Assembly: GCF_003667575.1 (NCBI RefSeq)
Contig: NZ_RCUY01000002.1
Coordinates: 558,001 to 622,000 of the forward strand
DNA: 64,000 nt
Reading direction: 5' to 3'
Origin: Mycetocola lacteus
GTDB lineage: Bacteria; Actinomycetota; Actinomycetes; Actinomycetales; Microbacteriaceae
Made by a program: the position numbers and the translations under genes. The notes below the pieces were generated by a model, which did not search any database, was not told the origin of the DNA, and saw only the letters and a program-made list of their open reading frames with translations. Shown piece by piece: positions 56,468 through 64,000 of the stretch (the first letter of the stretch is position 1; every line of letters begins with the position of its first letter).

Positions 56468-57445
56468 CTAGTGACCGGTGGACTCGCGCACCAGCACCCG
56501 CGGGGTCACCAGCAGACCCGTGGTTCTGGTGCCGTCAACGATTTCCAGCGACGCGCGGACGATCTCATCCACGACCGAGTCCAGCGTGGTGAGACCCGGG
56601 CTCGTGACACCAGAGAGCGCGGTGCCGTCGAAGGTGGCCAGGGCGATGTCCTGGGGGACACGCAGTCCCGCATGCTGGAATGCGGTGAGCAGGCCCAGCG
56701 AGACCACGTCGGCGGTGCAGATCACGGCGTCCGGCATGTCCGCGGATTCGCGCAGGATGCGGGCCGCCTCGGTTCCGCTGTGCATCGAAAACGTGGGCAT
56801 CTGGAGGACCGTGCAGCCGAGCCCGGCCACCTCGCGGAACGCTTCGGCCCGCTCGCGGCTGGCCGAGGAGCGCGGCTCGGCATCCACCAGGACGATGCGC
56901 TCGCGGCCGCCCTCGCGCAGGTGCTCAACCAGCAGTCGGATTCCGGCGGCGTTGTCCAACCTGACCGCGGGAGCATCCACGCCGGCGGCGATACGGTCTA
57001 CCTGAACCACCGCGTGCGTGGCCGCGAGTGCGGCAATTGCCGGAGCGCTGCCCTCATGGTCCACCGGGGCGATCAGGACCGCATCCACCATCACCCGGTC
57101 CATATCCGCGAGTTGACGACGTTCACTCTCGACCGAGTCGTTGGTATCGAAGGTCACCACGCGGCGACCCTCGGCGTCCAGGTGCCGCGAATAGGAGGCG
57201 ACCAGCTCGGCGTAATAGGGGTTGGCCACCGAGGGCACCACGAGCGCGATCGAGCCGGTGGTCTGCAGGCGCAGGGCACGGGCCGCGGCGTTCACGCGGT
57301 AGCCGAGTTCCACGGTGGCGGCCTGGACGCGTTCGGCCAGCTCCGGGGCCACGTTCCGATCTACGCCGGAGAGCACCCGGCTGGCGGTCGTCGGGGAGAC
57401 ACCCGCGGCGGTTGCCACATCCTTGAGACTCACGCGTCTGGCCAT
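56468..57445 (-). CDS. LacI family repressor of the kinase/permease/glycosidase cluster
   Basis: The 325-residue repressor has the LacI helix-turn-helix (SLKDVATAAGVSPTTASRVLSG, residues 6-27 in two helices) and a periplasmic-binding-protein-like sensor domain. AGGAGG lies before the ATG. It is divergent from a ribokinase-like gene whose promoter carries a perfect palindrome on the transcription start; this repressor is the natural candidate to bind it. The inducer is unknown but is probably the sugar or glycoside degraded by the cluster. Confidence 0.93.
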   Translation of the reverse strand: MARRVSLKDVATAAGVSPTTASRVLSGVDRNVAPELAERVQAATVELGYRVNAAARALRLQTTGSIALVVPSVANPYYAELVASYSRHLDAEGRRVVTFDTNDSVESERRQLADMDRVMVDAVLIAPVDHEGSAPAIAALAATHAVVQVDRIAAGVDAPAVRLDNAAGIRLLVEHLREGGRERIVLVDAEPRSSASRERAEAFREVAGLGCTVLQMPTFSMHSGTEAARILRESADMPDAVICTADVVSLGLLTAFQHAGLRVPQDIALATFDGTALSGVTSPGLTTLDSVVDEIVRASLEIVDGTRTTGLLVTPRVLVRESTGH

Positions 57446-57497
57446 CGGTCCTCCTGCACGTCAATCTTTTTAGAGTACCAACAACACGGCCTCCGGC

Positions 57498-57526
57498 TTG
57501 ACAGATTTGGAACCTCATGCGACATT
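57498..57526 (+). promoter_or_regulatory. Promoter of the ribokinase-like gene
   Basis: A perfect -35 TTGACA (57498-57503), a 17-base spacer and GACATT (57521-57526) place transcription start on or next to the ATG at 57533. Confidence 0.7.
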
Positions 57527-57544
57527 TGGGAAATGCATTTCCCA
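57527..57544. promoter_or_regulatory. LacI-type operator spanning the start codon of the kinase gene
   Basis: TGGGAAATGCATTTCCCA is a perfect 18-base palindrome directly after the -10 element; the ATG start codon lies in its left half. Its size and place fit the operator of the divergent LacI protein. Confidence 0.75.
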
Positions 57545-58429
57545 CACAATGATGTTGACGTTTTGGTGATCGGCTCGGTAAACCTCGATACCGGATTTAC
57601 GCTGCCCCGCGCCCCGCGGGTGGGCGAGACGATCGCCGCGCTCGACATGGTGGAACGCGGCGGCGGAAAGGGCGCAAACCAGGCCTATGCCGCCGCTCGC
57701 GCGGGCGCGTCGACAACGCTGCTGGCGGCCGTCGGGCACGACGCCGATCCCGCCCTCGCGGACCTGCGCACCGTGAACGTGGCCCTGGGAGACCTGGTGA
57801 GCGTCCCCAACGTGCCCACCGGACGCGCGGTCCTGCTGCTGGCCGGCGGCGAAAACACCATCGTGGTCAACGCCGGGGCCAACGCCCACCTCACCGCACA
57901 GCACGTGAGCGACTGGGCATCAACCCACACCGCACCGAGCGTCGTGGCCCTGCAGCACGAGGTCGAGGCCCCCGTGATCGATGCCGCCCTCGACGCCTTC
58001 GGCGAGCGCGCCCGCATCGTCCTGAACCCCTCCCCCTGGCGCGACGGCGCGGCCGAGGCCGTGCGCCGAGCCCACGTCGTGGTGCTCAACGAGGTCGAAC
58101 TGGAGCAGGCCCTGGGCCTGGAACCGGTCACCGATGAGGAGCCCCTGGCCATCGCCCACCGCCTGATCGGTGACCTGCCCGGCGGCGACGTCGTGGTCAC
58201 CCTCGGCGGCGACGGCGCCCTCGTGCGCCAGGGTGGCGAGGTCACCCACGTCCCCGCGATCCGCACCACCCCGGTCGACACCGTCGGCGCCGGCGATGCG
58301 TTCCTGGGAACCCTGACCGCGGCCCTCGCCCGCGGCGAAGACCTGGTGTCGGCGGCCACCGCCGGGGCCACCGCGGCCGCGGTCGTGGTCACCATTCACG
58401 GCGCTCGAGACACAACTCCGATGCCCTAG
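57533..58429 (+). CDS. PfkB family sugar kinase, ribokinase-like
   Basis: The 298-residue kinase has the first PfkB signature GGGKGANQA (residues 43-51, matching ribokinase) and the second signature DTVGAGDAF near 249-257 with the catalytic Asp. It should phosphorylate ribose or a related sugar or nucleoside. The ATG at 57533 lies six bases after the -10 element, and no ribosome-binding site is separate from the operator palindrome, so a leaderless start is likely. The gene opens the cluster with two NCS1 permeases and a glycoside hydrolase. Confidence 0.9.
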   Translation: MHFPHNDVDVLVIGSVNLDTGFTLPRAPRVGETIAALDMVERGGGKGANQAYAAARAGASTTLLAAVGHDADPALADLRTVNVALGDLVSVPNVPTGRAVLLLAGGENTIVVNAGANAHLTAQHVSDWASTHTAPSVVALQHEVEAPVIDAALDAFGERARIVLNPSPWRDGAAEAVRRAHVVVLNEVELEQALGLEPVTDEEPLAIAHRLIGDLPGGDVVVTLGGDGALVRQGGEVTHVPAIRTTPVDTVGAGDAFLGTLTAALARGEDLVSAATAGATAAAVVVTIHGARDTTPMP

Positions 58430-58597
58430 CCACCACCACCGGGCGTTCAGCCCGTTTCCAGCGGCGCACCTCATCGTGGACTCCCGTCCACGTCCCCCAT
58501 CTTCGTGAACCCGACAACGCGATCACGATCCCGGTGCTCAGTCACCCCGGTTTCCGGGCACCACCACTCCCCACAACCGCCATTTGAAAGGCACATC

Positions 58598-60106
58598 ATG
58601 AGCAACGAGGCTCAGGCTCGCGACACCGCAGGCTCAGCCCTCACCGTTGAAACCAACGGTGTAAACCCCGTCCCCGACAGCGAACGTCGAGGTTCCCCCC
58701 GGGGCCTGTTCGCCGTGTGGTTCGCCTGGAACATTTCGATCCTGGGCATCAGCTACGGCATCTTCGTTTTCACCCTGGGACTGGACGTCTGGCAGACGAT
58801 CCTGGCCGGCACCATCGGCTACATCATCTCCGCCTCCCTGGTGGGGGTGCTGGCCGTCGGCGGTCCGCGCACCGGCCTGCCGACCCTGGTGCAGACCCGG
58901 TTCGCGTTCGGCCTGCGCGGTAACGTGGTGCCCGCCTTCTTCGCCTACCTGTCGAACATGGGCTGGAAGGTGACCATCATCACCCTGGCCTCCACCACCG
59001 GTGCCAACCTGTTCTCGACCCTGTGGCCGAGCGTCTTCGGTAATGGTTCGGGCAAGCCCGCGACCTTCATCGTGGTCATCTGGTTTGTGGTTGTCCTCGC
59101 GGTCACCATGGCCGTGGCCGTGCTGGGGCACGAGTTCATCATGAAGATCGAGGTGTGGATCTCCTGGGTCACCGGCATCATGACCATCGCCTTCCTGGGC
59201 TTTGTGCTGCCCGAGGTCAAGTGGGACCAGCTGGGTCAGACCCCGGCCGGCGGCCCGCTGGTCTTCATCGGCGGCGTGATCATGGCCATGACCATGGTGG
59301 GCATCGGCTTCCTCAACTACGGCGGCGACTTCGCCCGCTACCTGCCCAAGAAGACCCCGGCCAAGTCGGTCATCGGCTGGACCACCCTGGGCCTGTCGCT
59401 GCCGGTTGTGGCCCTGCTGATCGTGGGTGCCCTGCTCGTGGGCAGCGATCCCAAGCTCGGTGCCGCCGCCGCCTCCGACCCGATCGGTGCGCTCACCGCG
59501 CTGCTGCCGATGTGGTTCTTCATCCCGTTCTCGATCGTCATTGTGATCTCGCTGATCTCGGCCGCCATCACCGGCGTCTACAGCTCGGGCCTGGCCCTGA
59601 TGGCCGTGGGCTTCCCGCTGCGCCGCTCGATGACCACCGCAATCAACGCGCTGATCATCGCCGCCGGAGCCTTCTACCTGCTCTTCATCTCCGACTCGTT
59701 CCTGGCGACCTTCCAGTCCTTCCTCTCGCTGATCGCGGTCATGATGGGCACGATGGGTGGCATTCAGCTGGTGGACTTCATCCGTCAGGGTCGCCTGAAC
59801 TGGGACACGCGTCTCGCGCTGCCCGCCGGTTACGGTGGACGCACGGTGCGCTGGACCGCCCTGGCCAGCCTGGCCCTGGGCACCATCGTGGGCCTGGGTA
59901 CCGTGACCAGCGCCGACCCCAACTTTGCTCACGTCACCGGGTTCCTGCTGACCCCGGAGGCACGCGCCGGGGTGATCGGCTCCAGCAACATCGGAGTGAT
60001 CATCGCCCTGGTACTCGGTGCGGCAAGCTACGCTCTGCTCACCTTCGGTTTCAAGATTGATCCGAAGCCCGATTTCTCCAAGATCGACCCGTCGATCACC
60101 AAATAA
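58598..60106 (+). CDS. NCS1 family nucleobase-type permease (first copy)
   Basis: The 502-residue importer has about 12 hydrophobic segments and the NCS1 (purine/cytosine permease) layout: VGGPRTGLPTLVQTRFAFG (about 85-103), SNMGWKVTIITLASTTGAN and the GGDFARYLPKKTP block near 243-255. NCS1 proteins import nucleobases, allantoin, hydantoins or related ring compounds. GAAAGG precedes the ATG at 58598. It lies 168 bases after the kinase gene and before a close paralog, separated by a hairpin. Confidence 0.93.
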   Translation: MSNEAQARDTAGSALTVETNGVNPVPDSERRGSPRGLFAVWFAWNISILGISYGIFVFTLGLDVWQTILAGTIGYIISASLVGVLAVGGPRTGLPTLVQTRFAFGLRGNVVPAFFAYLSNMGWKVTIITLASTTGANLFSTLWPSVFGNGSGKPATFIVVIWFVVVLAVTMAVAVLGHEFIMKIEVWISWVTGIMTIAFLGFVLPEVKWDQLGQTPAGGPLVFIGGVIMAMTMVGIGFLNYGGDFARYLPKKTPAKSVIGWTTLGLSLPVVALLIVGALLVGSDPKLGAAAASDPIGALTALLPMWFFIPFSIVIVISLISAAITGVYSSGLALMAVGFPLRRSMTTAINALIIAAGAFYLLFISDSFLATFQSFLSLIAVMMGTMGGIQLVDFIRQGRLNWDTRLALPAGYGGRTVRWTALASLALGTIVGLGTVTSADPNFAHVTGFLLTPEARAGVIGSSNIGVIIALVLGAASYALLTFGFKIDPKPDFSKIDPSITK

Positions 60107-60113
60107 CATCCTC

Positions 60114-60137
60114 GGGGCGCGGCACCCGCCGCGCCCC
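60114..60137 (+). terminator. Hairpin between the two NCS1 permease genes
   Basis: GGGGCGCGGC pairs exactly with GCCGCGCCCC around ACCC, followed by TTCGGTTT. It could partly terminate transcription or stabilise the upstream mRNA end. Confidence 0.55.
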
Positions 60138-60160
60138 TTCGGTTTCCTCAAGGGAGCAAC

Positions 60161-61816
60161 ATGAGCGACAACGCAGCGGGCGCCATCGGCACCCCCACCA
60201 GCAGCACGATGGGGGTCGAGGCGAACGGTATCAATCCGGTTCCGGACGCCGAGCGTCGGGGTAAGCCCAGCGGGTTGTTCCCGGTCTGGTTCTCCTGGAA
60301 CGTGTCGATTCTGGGGGTGAGCTACGGAATCTTCATCTTCACCCTGGGGCTGAATGTCTGGCAGACGATCATCGCCGGAACCCTCGGTTATCTGATCTCG
60401 GCCGCGCTGGTGGGCCTGATCGCCGTGGGTGGTCCGCGCACCGGCCTACCCACGCTCGTGCAGACCCGCTTCGCGTTCGGCTCCAAGGGCAACTTTCTGC
60501 CCGCCTTCTTCGGCTACCTCTCCAACACCGGCTGGCAGGTGACCAGCATCACGCTGGCCTCGACCACCGGGGCGAACCTGTTTGCCAAGGTGTGGCCGTC
60601 GCTCTTCGCCGGAGACGGCGGTGCTCCCACCGTGCCGACCACCGTGGGCTGGTTCATCGTGGTGCTCGCGGTCACCATGACCGCTGCGGTGTTTGGCCAC
60701 GGATTCATCCTGGCCATCGAGGTGTGGATCGCCTGGATCACCGGCGTGATGACCATCGCGTTCCTGTTCTTTGTGCTCCCCGAGGTCAAGTGGGGTCAGC
60801 TGGGCACCGCCCAGGCCGGCGACCCGTTTGTGTTTGTGGGCGGCATCATCATGGCCATGACCATCGTGGGCATCGGCTTCATCAACTCTGGCGGCGACTT
60901 CTCCCGCTATCTGCCCCGCAAGACCCACGCCCGCGGCGTGATCGGTGCCACGACCTTCGGTATCGCCGTCCCGGTGATCGCGATGCTCGTCGTGGGCGCG
61001 CTGCTGGTCGGCAGCGATGCCAAGCTCGGTGAGGCCGCCGCCAACGACCCGATTGGCGCGCTGACCTCGCTGCTGCCGATGTGGTTCTTTATCCCGTTCT
61101 CGATCGTGATCGTGCTGTCCCTGGTGTCCGCCGCGACCACCGGTATCTACAGCTCGGGCCTCGCCCTGATGGCCGTGGGATTCCCGCTGCGGCGCTCGGT
61201 CACCACCGCGATTAACGCGCTGCTAATCGCCGCCGGGGCCTTCTACCTGCTCTTCATCTCGACCTCGTTCCTGGCTACGTTCCAGTCCTTCCTTTCGCTG
61301 ATCGCCGTGCTGATGGGCACCATGGGTGGTATCCAGCTGGTCGACTTCATCCGCCAGCGTCGCCTGAACTGGGACATCCGGATGATCAACGGGTCGGGAT
61401 TCGGCGGCCGCGACTGGCGCTGGACCGCGTTTGTGAGCCTGATCATCGGCACCATCGTGGGCCTCGGCACCGTGACCAGCGCCGACCCCAACTTCGCCCA
61501 CATCACCGGGTTCTTCCTCACCCAGGAGGCCCGTGAGGGTGTGATCGGAGCCAGCAACATCGGCGTGATCGGCGCGATGGTCCTCGGTGCCGCGCTCTAC
61601 GCGCTGCTCACCTTCGCCTTCAAGGTGGACCTGCCGCCGGACCGCTCAAAGCTCCCGGCCTCCGAGCAGGGTGACCTGCCCGCGGACGCCGAGATCCTGG
61701 CGGTCGGGGTAGCCGTGGCTGCTCCCGCGGACGCTCCCGCGGACGTCGTAGCAACCGAGGCCCCCGGAACCGCCGAAACTCCCGAGGCCGAGCTCGACCC
61801 CGAGGCCGCCCGATGA
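60161..61816 (+). CDS. NCS1 family nucleobase-type permease (second copy)
   Basis: The 551-residue protein is a close paralog of the first permease along its whole transmembrane part, with the same signature blocks (GGPRTGLPTLVQTRFAFG, GGDFSRYLPRKT). It adds a C-terminal Ala/Asp/Glu/Pro tail of about 45 residues. GGGAGC precedes the ATG. Its TGA overlaps the start of the glycoside hydrolase gene, coupling transport to hydrolysis. Confidence 0.93.
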   Translation: MSDNAAGAIGTPTSSTMGVEANGINPVPDAERRGKPSGLFPVWFSWNVSILGVSYGIFIFTLGLNVWQTIIAGTLGYLISAALVGLIAVGGPRTGLPTLVQTRFAFGSKGNFLPAFFGYLSNTGWQVTSITLASTTGANLFAKVWPSLFAGDGGAPTVPTTVGWFIVVLAVTMTAAVFGHGFILAIEVWIAWITGVMTIAFLFFVLPEVKWGQLGTAQAGDPFVFVGGIIMAMTIVGIGFINSGGDFSRYLPRKTHARGVIGATTFGIAVPVIAMLVVGALLVGSDAKLGEAAANDPIGALTSLLPMWFFIPFSIVIVLSLVSAATTGIYSSGLALMAVGFPLRRSVTTAINALLIAAGAFYLLFISTSFLATFQSFLSLIAVLMGTMGGIQLVDFIRQRRLNWDIRMINGSGFGGRDWRWTAFVSLIIGTIVGLGTVTSADPNFAHITGFFLTQEAREGVIGASNIGVIGAMVLGAALYALLTFAFKVDLPPDRSKLPASEQGDLPADAEILAVGVAVAAPADAPADVVATEAPGTAETPEAELDPEAAR

Positions 61817-64000
61817 GCGCCGAGCGCGCCGCCGACGTTGCCAGCACCACCGACGCTGCCAACACCGCTGACGCAGACACGGTGTTGGCCACCGACGCGG
61901 CGTTTGTGACCCCCGACGCCTGGCACTCCCCGGCGACCTACTGGTTCTGGCACCACCTGCCCGACGAGGAGCAGGTGCGCACCCAGGTGCGGCAGATGCA
62001 CGCGGCCGGGATCAAGAGCTTCCAGGTTCAGGCGCGCCTGTCGTTCCCGATGCATGAGTATCTGGAGCCCGCCTACCTCACCGCGTGCCGCTGGGCCGTG
62101 GAGGAGGCCGCCGCGCTGGGCATGATCGTGGGCTTCTACGACGACTACAACTGGCAGACCGGTCAGGCTGGCGGCCGCGCGGTAGCCGGACACGATCACC
62201 TGCGCGAACGCCACCTGTTCTGGACCCGGATCGAGCTTTCGCAAGGCGCGGGAACCGGGGAAATCTCCGGCATCGTCTCGGGCACCGAGGGTCTCGGTCC
62301 CGCCGCGATGGCCTGGCACTACGACGGCGGCGTGCCGCTCTGGACCGACTGGCGGATCGAGCGGGCGCTGGCCGTCGACGGCACCGAGACCGCTGCCCCC
62401 ACCAACTCAGCGGACGTCGTGGACATTACCGCCGCGACCCGCATCGAGGCCACCGATACCGAGGCGGCGCTGAGCATCACCGGCACAGACCCCGCGCTGG
62501 GGTCGGCCCTGGTCCTGGTGTCCGCTCGGTCGTCAACCTCGCACCTGGTGAATCCGCTGGATCCCGAGGCTGTGGATCGCTTCATCGAGGCGGGCTATGA
62601 GCCCTTCCGCGAGGCCGTGGGCGATCACTTCGGTTCCACGGTGCGCTACGTCTTCTTCGATCAGCCGCACGCGGTGTACTACGACTGGGCGCAGCGCTCG
62701 GGCGGAGTAGGCTCCTCGGTCCCGGTCCACACCACCACGCTGGATCTGGCCCGCGCGCTGGGCGAAGACACCCATGCGGCAATGATCTGGGCGGTCTTTA
62801 CCGAGACCGAGGATCCCGCGGCCCTCGCCCTGCGCGCCCGATTCTGGCAGTTCTACGCCGAGCTCTCGATGGAGGGTTTCCTGGGGAAGCTGCGCGACTG
62901 GAGCCACCGCTACGGCCTGCTGCAGTCGGGGCACGAGGTCCTGACCCACATCGGCACGTTCACCCCCGGCACCGAATTTGGCGACTGGGATCTGCGGGCA
63001 AACTTCGGCCTCGACCACTTCGGCGTGGACGCCTACCGCGACCTCACCGCCGTGGATGCTCAGGATGGCGTGGCCCAGCTGAGCCCGCGCCTGGGCGATT
63101 CGATCGCCCGCGCGACCGGCCGCACCGGCACGATCGTCGAGCAGTACTTCCTGACCCCGCCCGAGGGCGGCACCCCCTGGTCGGGCCACTGGGGCCTGAC
63201 CCTGGACGAGCTGCGCTCCACCACGATCCGGCACCACCTGGCGGGCATGCGGCAGATGGTCTTCCACGGGTTTTATCAGACCCATGGACACGGCAACGAT
63301 CATGAGTCGATGGCTAACCCTCGCTTCGACTTCCCGCCGGGCATCAACTTTGAGCCCTGGTTTGCCGACTTCCACGCGGCCTATGCGACCGAGTCTGCCC
63401 GGCTGAGCGAGTTCCTCGAACCGCTCTCCGATGAGGCCTCGGCGCTGCTGTTCTGGCCGCTGCGCACGATCTGGACCCACGGTCAGTCGGGAGACCACTT
63501 CGACCAGTTTGGTGCCTGGGCGAAGGCATTGGACACCGCCGGGATCCCCTGGCGGGTGGTGGATGAGCGCGCCCTGTCCGATATCGCGGGAGGCTCGATC
63601 CCCACCGCCAGGGTCCTGATTCTGCCGGGCGTACGGACCCTCGCGAGCGCTGCGAGCATCGCGGCGCTGGAGGCGATCGACGCCGCCGGAATCCACGTGT
63701 TCTCCACCGGCTTCGGTCTGGAAACCCTGCAGGACGGTGGCGAGGTTCGAACGATCCCCACCACCCAGCTGGACGCGGTCCCCGATGCTGCGAACCTGGC
63801 TTCCCGGCTCGGGGTTTCTCGATCCGGAAACTCGGGATTTGTGCCCGCAGGCTCGTCGGCCGGGCTGCGGATTCGCTCCGGGGTCGACACCTCCGGCCGC
63901 ATCCGGGTGGCGCTCTTCAACGATGGGGTGAAACCCATCGAGGGATCACTGTTGGGTGCCAACACCGTGGAGTGGGAGCCCGCGACCGGGCTTGCCGCTC
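61813..64000 (+). CDS. GH106-like glycoside hydrolase (3' end outside window)
   Basis: The 729 visible codons continue beyond base 64000. After an Ala/Asp/Thr-rich N-terminus of about 35 residues comes a catalytic-type domain with SPATYWFWHHLPDEEQVR (about 39-56), GIKSFQVQARLSFP and GFYDDYNWQTGQAGGRAVA (about 112-130), the pattern of the GH106 alpha-L-rhamnosidase-like group. No signal peptide is visible, so it acts in the cytoplasm on an imported glycoside. Its ATG overlaps the TGA of the second permease. The bond it cuts is unknown. Confidence 0.75.
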   Translation, partial: MSAERAADVASTTDAANTADADTVLATDAAFVTPDAWHSPATYWFWHHLPDEEQVRTQVRQMHAAGIKSFQVQARLSFPMHEYLEPAYLTACRWAVEEAAALGMIVGFYDDYNWQTGQAGGRAVAGHDHLRERHLFWTRIELSQGAGTGEISGIVSGTEGLGPAAMAWHYDGGVPLWTDWRIERALAVDGTETAAPTNSADVVDITAATRIEATDTEAALSITGTDPALGSALVLVSARSSTSHLVNPLDPEAVDRFIEAGYEPFREAVGDHFGSTVRYVFFDQPHAVYYDWAQRSGGVGSSVPVHTTTLDLARALGEDTHAAMIWAVFTETEDPAALALRARFWQFYAELSMEGFLGKLRDWSHRYGLLQSGHEVLTHIGTFTPGTEFGDWDLRANFGLDHFGVDAYRDLTAVDAQDGVAQLSPRLGDSIARATGRTGTIVEQYFLTPPEGGTPWSGHWGLTLDELRSTTIRHHLAGMRQMVFHGFYQTHGHGNDHESMANPRFDFPPGINFEPWFADFHAAYATESARLSEFLEPLSDEASALLFWPLRTIWTHGQSGDHFDQFGAWAKALDTAGIPWRVVDERALSDIAGGSIPTARVLILPGVRTLASAASIAALEAIDAAGIHVFSTGFGLETLQDGGEVRTIPTTQLDAVPDAANLASRLGVSRSGNSGFVPAGSSAGLRIRSGVDTSGRIRVALFNDGVKPIEGSLLGANTVEWEPATGLAA

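What the first reader, a model, noticed from the sequence alone, without database searches (positions are those of the whole stretch)
56468..64000. LacI, ribokinase-like kinase, two NCS1 permeases and a GH106-like glycosidase in one cluster
NCS1 permeases import nucleobase-like rings, ribokinase-like enzymes phosphorylate free ribose or similar sugars, and GH106-like enzymes split glycosides. Together, with a local LacI repressor and translational coupling between the second permease and the glycosidase, they suggest uptake of an intact base- or ring-glycoside, cytoplasmic cleavage, and use of the sugar. Nucleoside catabolism normally uses nucleoside hydrolases or phosphorylases; a GH106-like enzyme in that place would be new. 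The motifs and gene order are seen; the substrate is inference.
Basis: partly seen in the sequence, partly recalled or inferred. Interest (0 to 1): 0.68.

Follow-up and report, generated by a model that had tools for sequence, protein, structure and literature searches.

The report
Operon predicted to cleave ring-sugar conjugates
A Mycetocola bacterium carries a small gene set that seems to import a sugar-tagged ring compound, clip it inside the cell and use the sugar, and relatives of the clipping enzyme in root-nodule bacteria sit next to genes that digest vitamin B3, which suggests the ring may be B3-like.

Summary
The window, from Mycetocola (Microbacteriaceae), ends inside an operon: LacI / ribokinase-like kinase, two NCS1 permeases, a distant GH106 relative (916 aa) and, beyond base 64000, a FucU/RbsD mutarotase. 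The GH gene is in 3 of 4 Mycetocola genomes searched. No other genome matched among 299 of the family (E 1e-20) or 396 of the phylum (E 1e-50).

The key new evidence is outside Actinomycetota. Homologs (34-38% identity) on plasmids of Rhizobium, Shinella, Pararhizobium, Mesorhizobium and Pleomorphomonas lie within 4 kb of a nicotinate-dehydrogenase-like gene in 56 of 57 records compared; one was not checked. In R. tumorigenes four nic enzymes match solved relatives.

For Mycetocola the ring and sugar are inferred: best guess a pyridine (nicotinate-type) N-glycoside with ribose. NadA is missing in the three Mycetocola with the operon and present in the one without. Three of four glutamates invariant in five GH106 proteins are not kept, so I do not file it as a rhamnosidase. 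No biochemistry supports this yet.

The parts
56468..57445 (-). LacI-family repressor (325 aa), divergent from the operon
   Evidence: Pfam LacI 47.1 bits and Peripla_BP_3 78.8 bits, over cut-off; best NCBIfam RbsR 146.9 bits, below its 382 cut-off
57528..57543 (.). perfect 16-bp palindrome GGGAAATGCATTTCCC over the kinase start codon; candidate LacI operator (inferred)
   Evidence: identical in three Mycetocola; the only site in the own genome at up to 2 mismatches; 1 found against 0.22 expected by chance in the window at up to 3 mismatches
57533..58429 (+). PfkB ribokinase-like sugar kinase (298 aa)
   Evidence: Pfam PfkB 161.7 bits (scanned from 57527); TIGR02152 ribokinase 209.8 bits, below the 299.65 cut-off; all seven PDB sequences at E 1e-30 are ribokinases
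58598..60106 (+). NCS1 permease a (502 aa)
   Evidence: Pfam Transp_cyt_pur 129.7 bits (scanned with the longer frame from 58505); TIGR00800 92.4, below the 353.1 cut-off
60114..60137 (+). GC-rich hairpin between the two permease genes, possible attenuator
   Evidence: terminator-like scan of L002 6115-6138, 10 G-C pairs; a similar hairpin, reported on the other strand, in M. saprophilus; both scans find little more than chance overall
60161..61816 (+). NCS1 permease b (551 aa), 75% identical to a
   Evidence: Pfam Transp_cyt_pur 147.6 bits; identity
61813..64000 (+). GH106-related glycosidase, 916 aa; runs on to base 64563. A FucU/RbsD mutarotase follows at 64556-64981 (outside the window)

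Best explanation
The operon imports and splits a ring N-glycoside. The NCS1 pair carries the intact conjugate into the cell (inferred). The GH106-related enzyme, whose N-terminus shows no obvious secretion signal on reading (no predictor was run), hydrolyses the ring-sugar bond (inferred from genome context). FucU/RbsD brings the released sugar into the form the kinase needs, and the ribokinase-like kinase phosphorylates it (inferred from family). LacI represses the operon until a sugar or conjugate is present, probably through the palindrome over the kinase start (inferred). The ring is most likely a pyridine of the nicotinate type, because the same enzyme family stands in nicotinate catabolic clusters of alphaproteobacteria. 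The sugar is most likely D-ribose, since kinase plus pyranase would complete ribose use and no isomerase or aldolase is in the operon. In Mycetocola the ring may feed NAD synthesis rather than being degraded, because the genomes with the operon gave no match for NadA or NicX.
For: Operon and overlaps, same order in two further Mycetocola species. GH homologs within 4 kb of NicB-like genes in 56 of 57 records compared, with gene order differing in Mesorhizobium and Pleomorphomonas. NicC, NicX and NicE of R. tumorigenes match solved enzymes of those names or functions, and NicF its enzyme family. A kinase 35% identical to the window kinase inside the Mesorhizobium nic/GH locus. Kinase closest to ribokinases and a FucU/RbsD family member. 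NadA absent in the 3 Mycetocola with the operon and present in the 1 without it. Arabidopsis makes nicotinate N-glucoside, N-pentoside and tentatively N-rhamnoside (PMC6776627, abstract and passages).
Against: No substrate was tested. No nic genes were seen at the Mycetocola locus: NicX matched 0 of 4 genomes, without a positive control, and NicC matched 3 of 4 at only 27-43% identity (best E 2.5e-23), probably other FAD monooxygenases. PF04095 (nicotinate phosphoribosyltransferase) matched 0 of 4; the control rang in 6 of 14 genomes and not in C. glutamicum, so this is inconclusive, but use of the ring for NAD is not shown. The NadA correlation rests on four genomes and perhaps one event. GH homologs in six alphaproteobacterial loci have no NCS1 gene. 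NCBIfam gave none of the eight R. tumorigenes proteins a name over its cut-off. The regulator is of a type usual for sugars. The predicted structure was too poor to use (mean pLDDT 37.9).
Confidence: 0.42

Rival explanations
1. The ring is a different heterocycle (imidazole, hydantoin or unusual nucleobase). After cleavage it is degraded by the neighbouring CodB-HydA-DUF917 module, so all nine genes form one pathway.
For: In M. saprophilus and M. tolaasinivorans the DUF1684-CodB-HydA-DUF917 genes directly follow FucU; HydA is in the same 3 of 4 Mycetocola genomes (E 1e-100); NCS1 permeases and hydantoinase-type enzymes both fit ring compounds.
Against: HydA-DUF917 units, one of them with a CodB-type permease, occur in three plasmid loci read without a GH gene in the stretch. 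In the window genome three extra genes separate the two parts. The second unit has its own conserved upstream element.
Confidence: 0.22
2. Ordinary glycoside use: the enzyme is a rhamnosidase or other O-glycosidase for plant or fungal glycosides, and the NCS1 genes carry something unrelated or the sugar itself.
For: Distant GH106 relationship; the Mesorhizobium member scores just above the Pfam cut-off (30.3 against 29).
Against: Three glutamates that are invariant in five GH106 proteins are not kept in the family; homologs sit near nic genes; no rhamnose isomerase in 4 of 4 Mycetocola, with the control ringing in 3 of 14; the kinase is ribokinase-like.
Confidence: 0.2
3. Nicotinate N-rhamnoside is the substrate: the GH106 ancestry reflects the sugar and the nic context reflects the ring.
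For: Nicotinate N-rhamnoside is tentatively reported in Arabidopsis (PMC6776627); Pfam names GH106 alpha-L-rhamnosidase; Rhizobium clusters hold three glycosidases by annotation (GH106-like, trehalase-like, GH3), checked by Pfam in one.
Against: No RhaA match in Mycetocola and a ribokinase-like kinase, so at least there rhamnose is unlikely.
Confidence: 0.1

Closest known systems
GH106 alpha-L-rhamnosidases (PDB 6q2f, 5mqm; 5mqm as BT0986 is recalled)
   Same: Full-length profile similarity to five GH106 proteins; profile matches to 6q2f and 5mqm at the N-terminal stretch and C-terminal part; D283, E443 and H485 equivalents kept
   Different: Mycetocola protein below the Pfam cut-off; the DSLE glutamate and both glutamates of the E-x-E motif are replaced; no RhaA match in the genus; nic context in relatives
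nic nicotinate catabolic cluster (NicAB, C, D, E, F, X; maleamate pathway, recalled)
   Same: Homologs of the GH gene lie in or beside it in alphaproteobacteria
   Different: No such cluster at the Mycetocola locus; NicX matched 0 of 4 genomes
Ribose/nucleoside operons with LacI regulator, ribokinase and RbsD pyranase (recalled)
   Same: LacI, ribokinase-like kinase and RbsD/FucU protein in one locus
   Different: NCS1 permeases in place of a ribose transporter; a GH106-related enzyme in place of a nucleoside hydrolase or phosphorylase
CodB-HydA-DUF917 module (S-methyl-thiohydantoin desulfurase-like)
   Same: Follows the operon in two Mycetocola species, same order as in a Streptomycetaceae plasmid
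   Different: Found elsewhere without the GH gene; 103 bits against the 450-bit cut-off for the named enzyme

Membership tests
GH106 alpha-L-rhamnosidase | Pfam PF17132 score over the gathering cut-off | tested here: not met
   19.3-20.2 against 29 bits for the Mycetocola protein; of six alphaproteobacterial members scanned 1 passes, Mesorhizobium with 30.3
GH106 alpha-L-rhamnosidase | Homology over the whole length | tested here: met
   hhalign 99.7%, E 2e-25, 768 columns against five Microbacteriaceae GH106 proteins
GH106 alpha-L-rhamnosidase | Conserved active-site glutamates (DSxE, ExE, later Glu; their catalytic role is recalled from BT0986) | tested here: not met
   Of four glutamates invariant in the five GH106 proteins one is retained (E443); same result in three hhalign settings; the alignments are shallow
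GH106 alpha-L-rhamnosidase | Release of L-rhamnose | not testable with these tools
   needs enzyme assay; RhaA matched 0 of 4 Mycetocola
Ribokinase | PfkB family and ribokinase equivalog score | tested here: inconclusive
   PfkB met; TIGR02152 209.8 against 299.65
Ribokinase | Ribose-site and catalytic residues of E. coli ribokinase (positions recalled) | tested here: met
   N-x-D, GGKGAN, the Glu after the LQ/MQL stretch and the aspartate of AGD are all aligned with E. coli ribokinase
NCS1 (nucleobase:cation symporter-1) | Transp_cyt_pur domain over cut-off | tested here: met
   129.7 and 147.6 bits against 23.5; subfamily model TIGR00800 not reached; NCS1b has no PDB sequence match at E 0.001
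RbsD/FucU mutarotase | PF05025 over cut-off | tested here: met
   117.8 bits against 25; L-fucose mutarotase equivalog 91.9 against 141 not reached
nic nicotinate catabolism (for the homologs) | NicC, NicX, NicE, NicF and NicAB-like genes together | tested here: met
   PDB matches for four proteins of R. tumorigenes, NicD only a generic alpha/beta hydrolase; homologs of all of them in R. rhododendri and R. leguminosarum CP050552. In Mesorhizobium NicX and NicAB, in Pleomorphomonas NicAB only, within the stretches read. NicAB itself was not compared with a solved nicotinate dehydrogenase
nic nicotinate catabolism (for Mycetocola) | NicX and NicC present | tested here: not met
   NicX 0 of 4; NicC 27-43% identity in 3 of 4, best E 2.5e-23; no positive control genome in those two searches

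The most novel reading that the evidence does not exclude
An unnamed enzyme family, split from GH106, hydrolyses plant or fungal pyridine N-glycosides (nicotinate conjugates). Rhizobia use it to reach the nicotinate that plants store as conjugates. Mycetocola, having lost NAD synthesis from quinolinate, uses it with NCS1 permeases to obtain both ribose and vitamin B3 from its host.
Probability: 0.3. Interest if true: 0.8.

Novelty: new variant of a known kind. Interest (0 to 1): 0.6.

Why it matters
Plants make nicotinate N-glycosides (PMC6776627). In my literature searches (listings, and passages of three papers) I saw no bacterial enzyme reported to split them; that library lacks most subscription papers. 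A gene family found near nic genes in five genera, and in a LacI/NCS1 operon of Mycetocola (a genus I recall from mushrooms), gives a direct candidate that can be expressed and assayed. It would also show a glycosidase doing work usually given to nucleoside hydrolases, with ring permeases as glycoside importers.

Tried and rejected
Structure prediction of the M. saprophilus GH from a two-sequence alignment gave mean pLDDT 37.9 and pTM 0.25, so no fold search was run on it. A viral contig scan with the family profile found no relative. At E 1e-60 only two plasmid records hold an NCS1b relative (40-42% identity); neither is annotated there, and their surroundings (10 kb each side) show no kinase, GH or FucU match. 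DUF1684 relatives: 4 plasmid records, 26-35% identity. Literature listings on NCS1 with glycosidases, GH106 with N-glycosides, and symporter with ribokinase gave nothing I judged relevant. Vitamin salvage through PF04095 could not be settled: 0 of 4 Mycetocola, but the control did not ring in C. glutamicum either, which I recall has the enzyme.
Full report
WHAT IS THERE. The window lies at G000:C7:558001-622000. The nearest named genomes found are Mycetocola saprophilus and M. tolaasinivorans, so this is a Mycetocola, family Microbacteriaceae. The five genes of the finding are real. Sequence beyond the window shows that the glycosidase gene encodes 916 aa and ends at 64563, and that an RbsD/FucU mutarotase gene overlaps its end at 64556-64981.

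CONSERVATION. Both named species carry the same order LacI / kinase, NCS1a, NCS1b, GH, FucU, with protein identities of 78-99%. The 4-base overlap between NCS1b and GH is present in all three. The six operon genes evolve under purifying selection against M. tolaasinivorans, dN/dS 0.05-0.22; the four downstream genes give 0.07-0.35. The GH protein matched 3 of 299 family genomes at E 1e-20, all Mycetocola, with a fourth Mycetocola lacking it, and its profile matched 1 of 396 Actinomycetota genomes at E 1e-50, the own one. NCS1b had no match at E 1e-100 outside the own genome in 248 genomes of the order.

NEIGHBOURS DOWNSTREAM. In M. saprophilus and M. tolaasinivorans a DUF1684 gene, a CodB-type permease, HydA and a DUF917 protein follow FucU directly. 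In the window genome an MFS gene, an SDR gene and a TetR-like gene stand in between (the names of MFS and TetR are read from the translations, SDR by Pfam). The region upstream of DUF1684 has its own conserved element. CodB-HydA-DUF917 in one plasmid locus and HydA-DUF917 in two others occur without a GH gene in the stretch read. I treat it as a separate unit that may or may not cooperate.

THE GH FAMILY. A protein search of plasmids gave 64 records with matches, 58 covering at least 80% of the query; 60 are alphaproteobacteria at about 35-40% identity and 4 are distant. Seven loci read with annotation, in Rhizobium (R. leguminosarum, R. tumorigenes twice, R. sp. CCGE532, R. ruizarguesonis), Shinella and Pararhizobium, show the gene within a nicotinate-type cluster; Mesorhizobium has a rearranged version, and Pleomorphomonas has nicBA 4 kb away on the other strand. 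Identities were checked on R. tumorigenes: NicC matches 6-hydroxynicotinate 3-monooxygenase at E 8e-180, NicX 2,5-dihydroxypyridine dioxygenase at 3e-95, NicE maleate isomerase at 7e-107. The NicF candidate matches N-carbamoylsarcosine amidohydrolase best (1.6e-52) and the group with 3uao, which I recall as NicF, at 1.5e-38. NicD is only a generic alpha/beta hydrolase, and NCBIfam named none of the eight proteins over its cut-off. The NicB-like protein has molybdopterin-binding and cytochrome c parts but was not compared with a proven nicotinate dehydrogenase.

Of the 60 alphaproteobacterial records I compared positions for 57 (three were not listed). 52 have a NicB-like match within 2 kb, 1 has its best NicB match 277 kb away, and 4 were not in the 60 of 183 NicB rows listed. 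Direct reading shows a nearby NicB for the distant one (R. rhododendri), for CP050552, for Mesorhizobium (2.2 kb) and for Pleomorphomonas (3.9 kb). That makes 56 of 57, with CP140826 unchecked. Many records are closely related strains, so the independent weight is five genera and a few gene orders. Nic clusters without the GH also exist: of the 60 listed NicB records 7 were not among the 57, and at most 3 of those can be the unlisted GH records. The enzyme is thus an accessory to nicotinate use.

ENZYME CHEMISTRY. The family aligns with GH106 over its length, and its profile finds the solved enzymes 6q2f and 5mqm at the N-terminal stretch and the C-terminal part. In three hhalign settings the GH106 glutamates of the DSLE motif and the E-x-E motif are replaced, while the aspartate of DSLE (D283), a later glutamate (E443) and a histidine (H485) are kept; H374-E375 is an invariant pair of this family. 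The catalytic role of these GH106 positions is recalled from the BT0986 work, not from a call. Loss of part of the carboxylate set would fit a bond whose leaving group needs no protonation, such as an N-glycosyl pyridinium; this is inference.

SUGAR. The kinase is PfkB; its PDB matches at E 1e-30 are all ribokinases, and it keeps the ribose-site residues (positions recalled). FucU/RbsD proteins convert anomers of fucose and ribose (recalled). No isomerase or aldolase is in the operon, and rhamnose isomerase matched 0 of 4 Mycetocola, with the control ringing in 3 of 14 genomes. Ribose is the simplest choice. A kinase 35% identical to this one, split by a frameshift, lies in the Mesorhizobium nic/GH locus; the other five loci searched have none.

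RING IN MYCETOCOLA. NicX matched none of four Mycetocola; NicC matched three at 27-43% identity, best E 2.5e-23, probably other FAD monooxygenases (no positive control). Degradation of nicotinate by that route is therefore unlikely. Quinolinate synthase NadA is absent from the three genomes with the operon and present in the one without it; the family control rang in 12 of 14 genomes. This suggests, on four genomes only, that the operon may supply a niacin source. The salvage enzyme could not be settled: PF04095 matched 0 of 4, and its control rang in 6 of 14 without C. glutamicum.

REGULATION. A perfect palindrome covers the kinase start codon, is identical in three species and is unique in the genome at up to 2 mismatches. 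It is the likely LacI operator. A TTGACA hexamer lies 17 bases before a weak second hexamer just upstream, which would give a leaderless message; the promoter scans did not report it.

LITERATURE. PMC6776627 (abstract and passages) reports nicotinate N-glucoside, N-pentoside and tentative N-rhamnoside in Arabidopsis. PMC13184244 (passages) shows nicotinic acid N-glucoside in nicotine biosynthesis and a plant glucosidase that does not accept it. [quoted passage not shown] I saw no report of a bacterial hydrolase for these conjugates in the listings of searches of an open-access library.

VERDICT. I rate it a new variant of a known kind.

Noticed in passing
L002:11226-14165 (window coordinates 65225-68164): Three genes (MFS, SDR, TetR-like) lie between FucU and DUF1684 in this genome; in both named Mycetocola FucU is followed directly by DUF1684.
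   Followed up: partly
L002:10949-11143: The end of the FucU gene and its 3' flank is repeated three times at 58-base spacing, beside the three extra genes; possibly a scar of their insertion.
   Followed up: partly
L002:15269-19324: CodB-type permease, HydA and DUF917 (S-methyl-thiohydantoin desulfurase-like) unit with unknown ring substrate; far below the cut-offs of the named enzymes; HydA relatives in 121 plasmid records at E 1e-60.
   Followed up: partly
L010:14639-24615 and equivalents: Rhizobial nic loci carry two more glycosidases (MGH1-like and GH3), an ABC transporter and an isochorismatase-type hydrolase, as if several nicotinate conjugates were used.
   Followed up: partly
L014:5742-6844: Ribokinase-like gene in the Mesorhizobium nic locus is split by a frameshift and unannotated.
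   Followed up: yes
L003:2065-7468: A second sugar cluster downstream: sugar isomerase/epimerase-like proteins, two dehydrogenases and a ROK-type regulator (read from translations, not searched).
   Followed up: no
G017 versus G000, G098, G160: NadA present in one Mycetocola genome and not found in three.
   Followed up: partly
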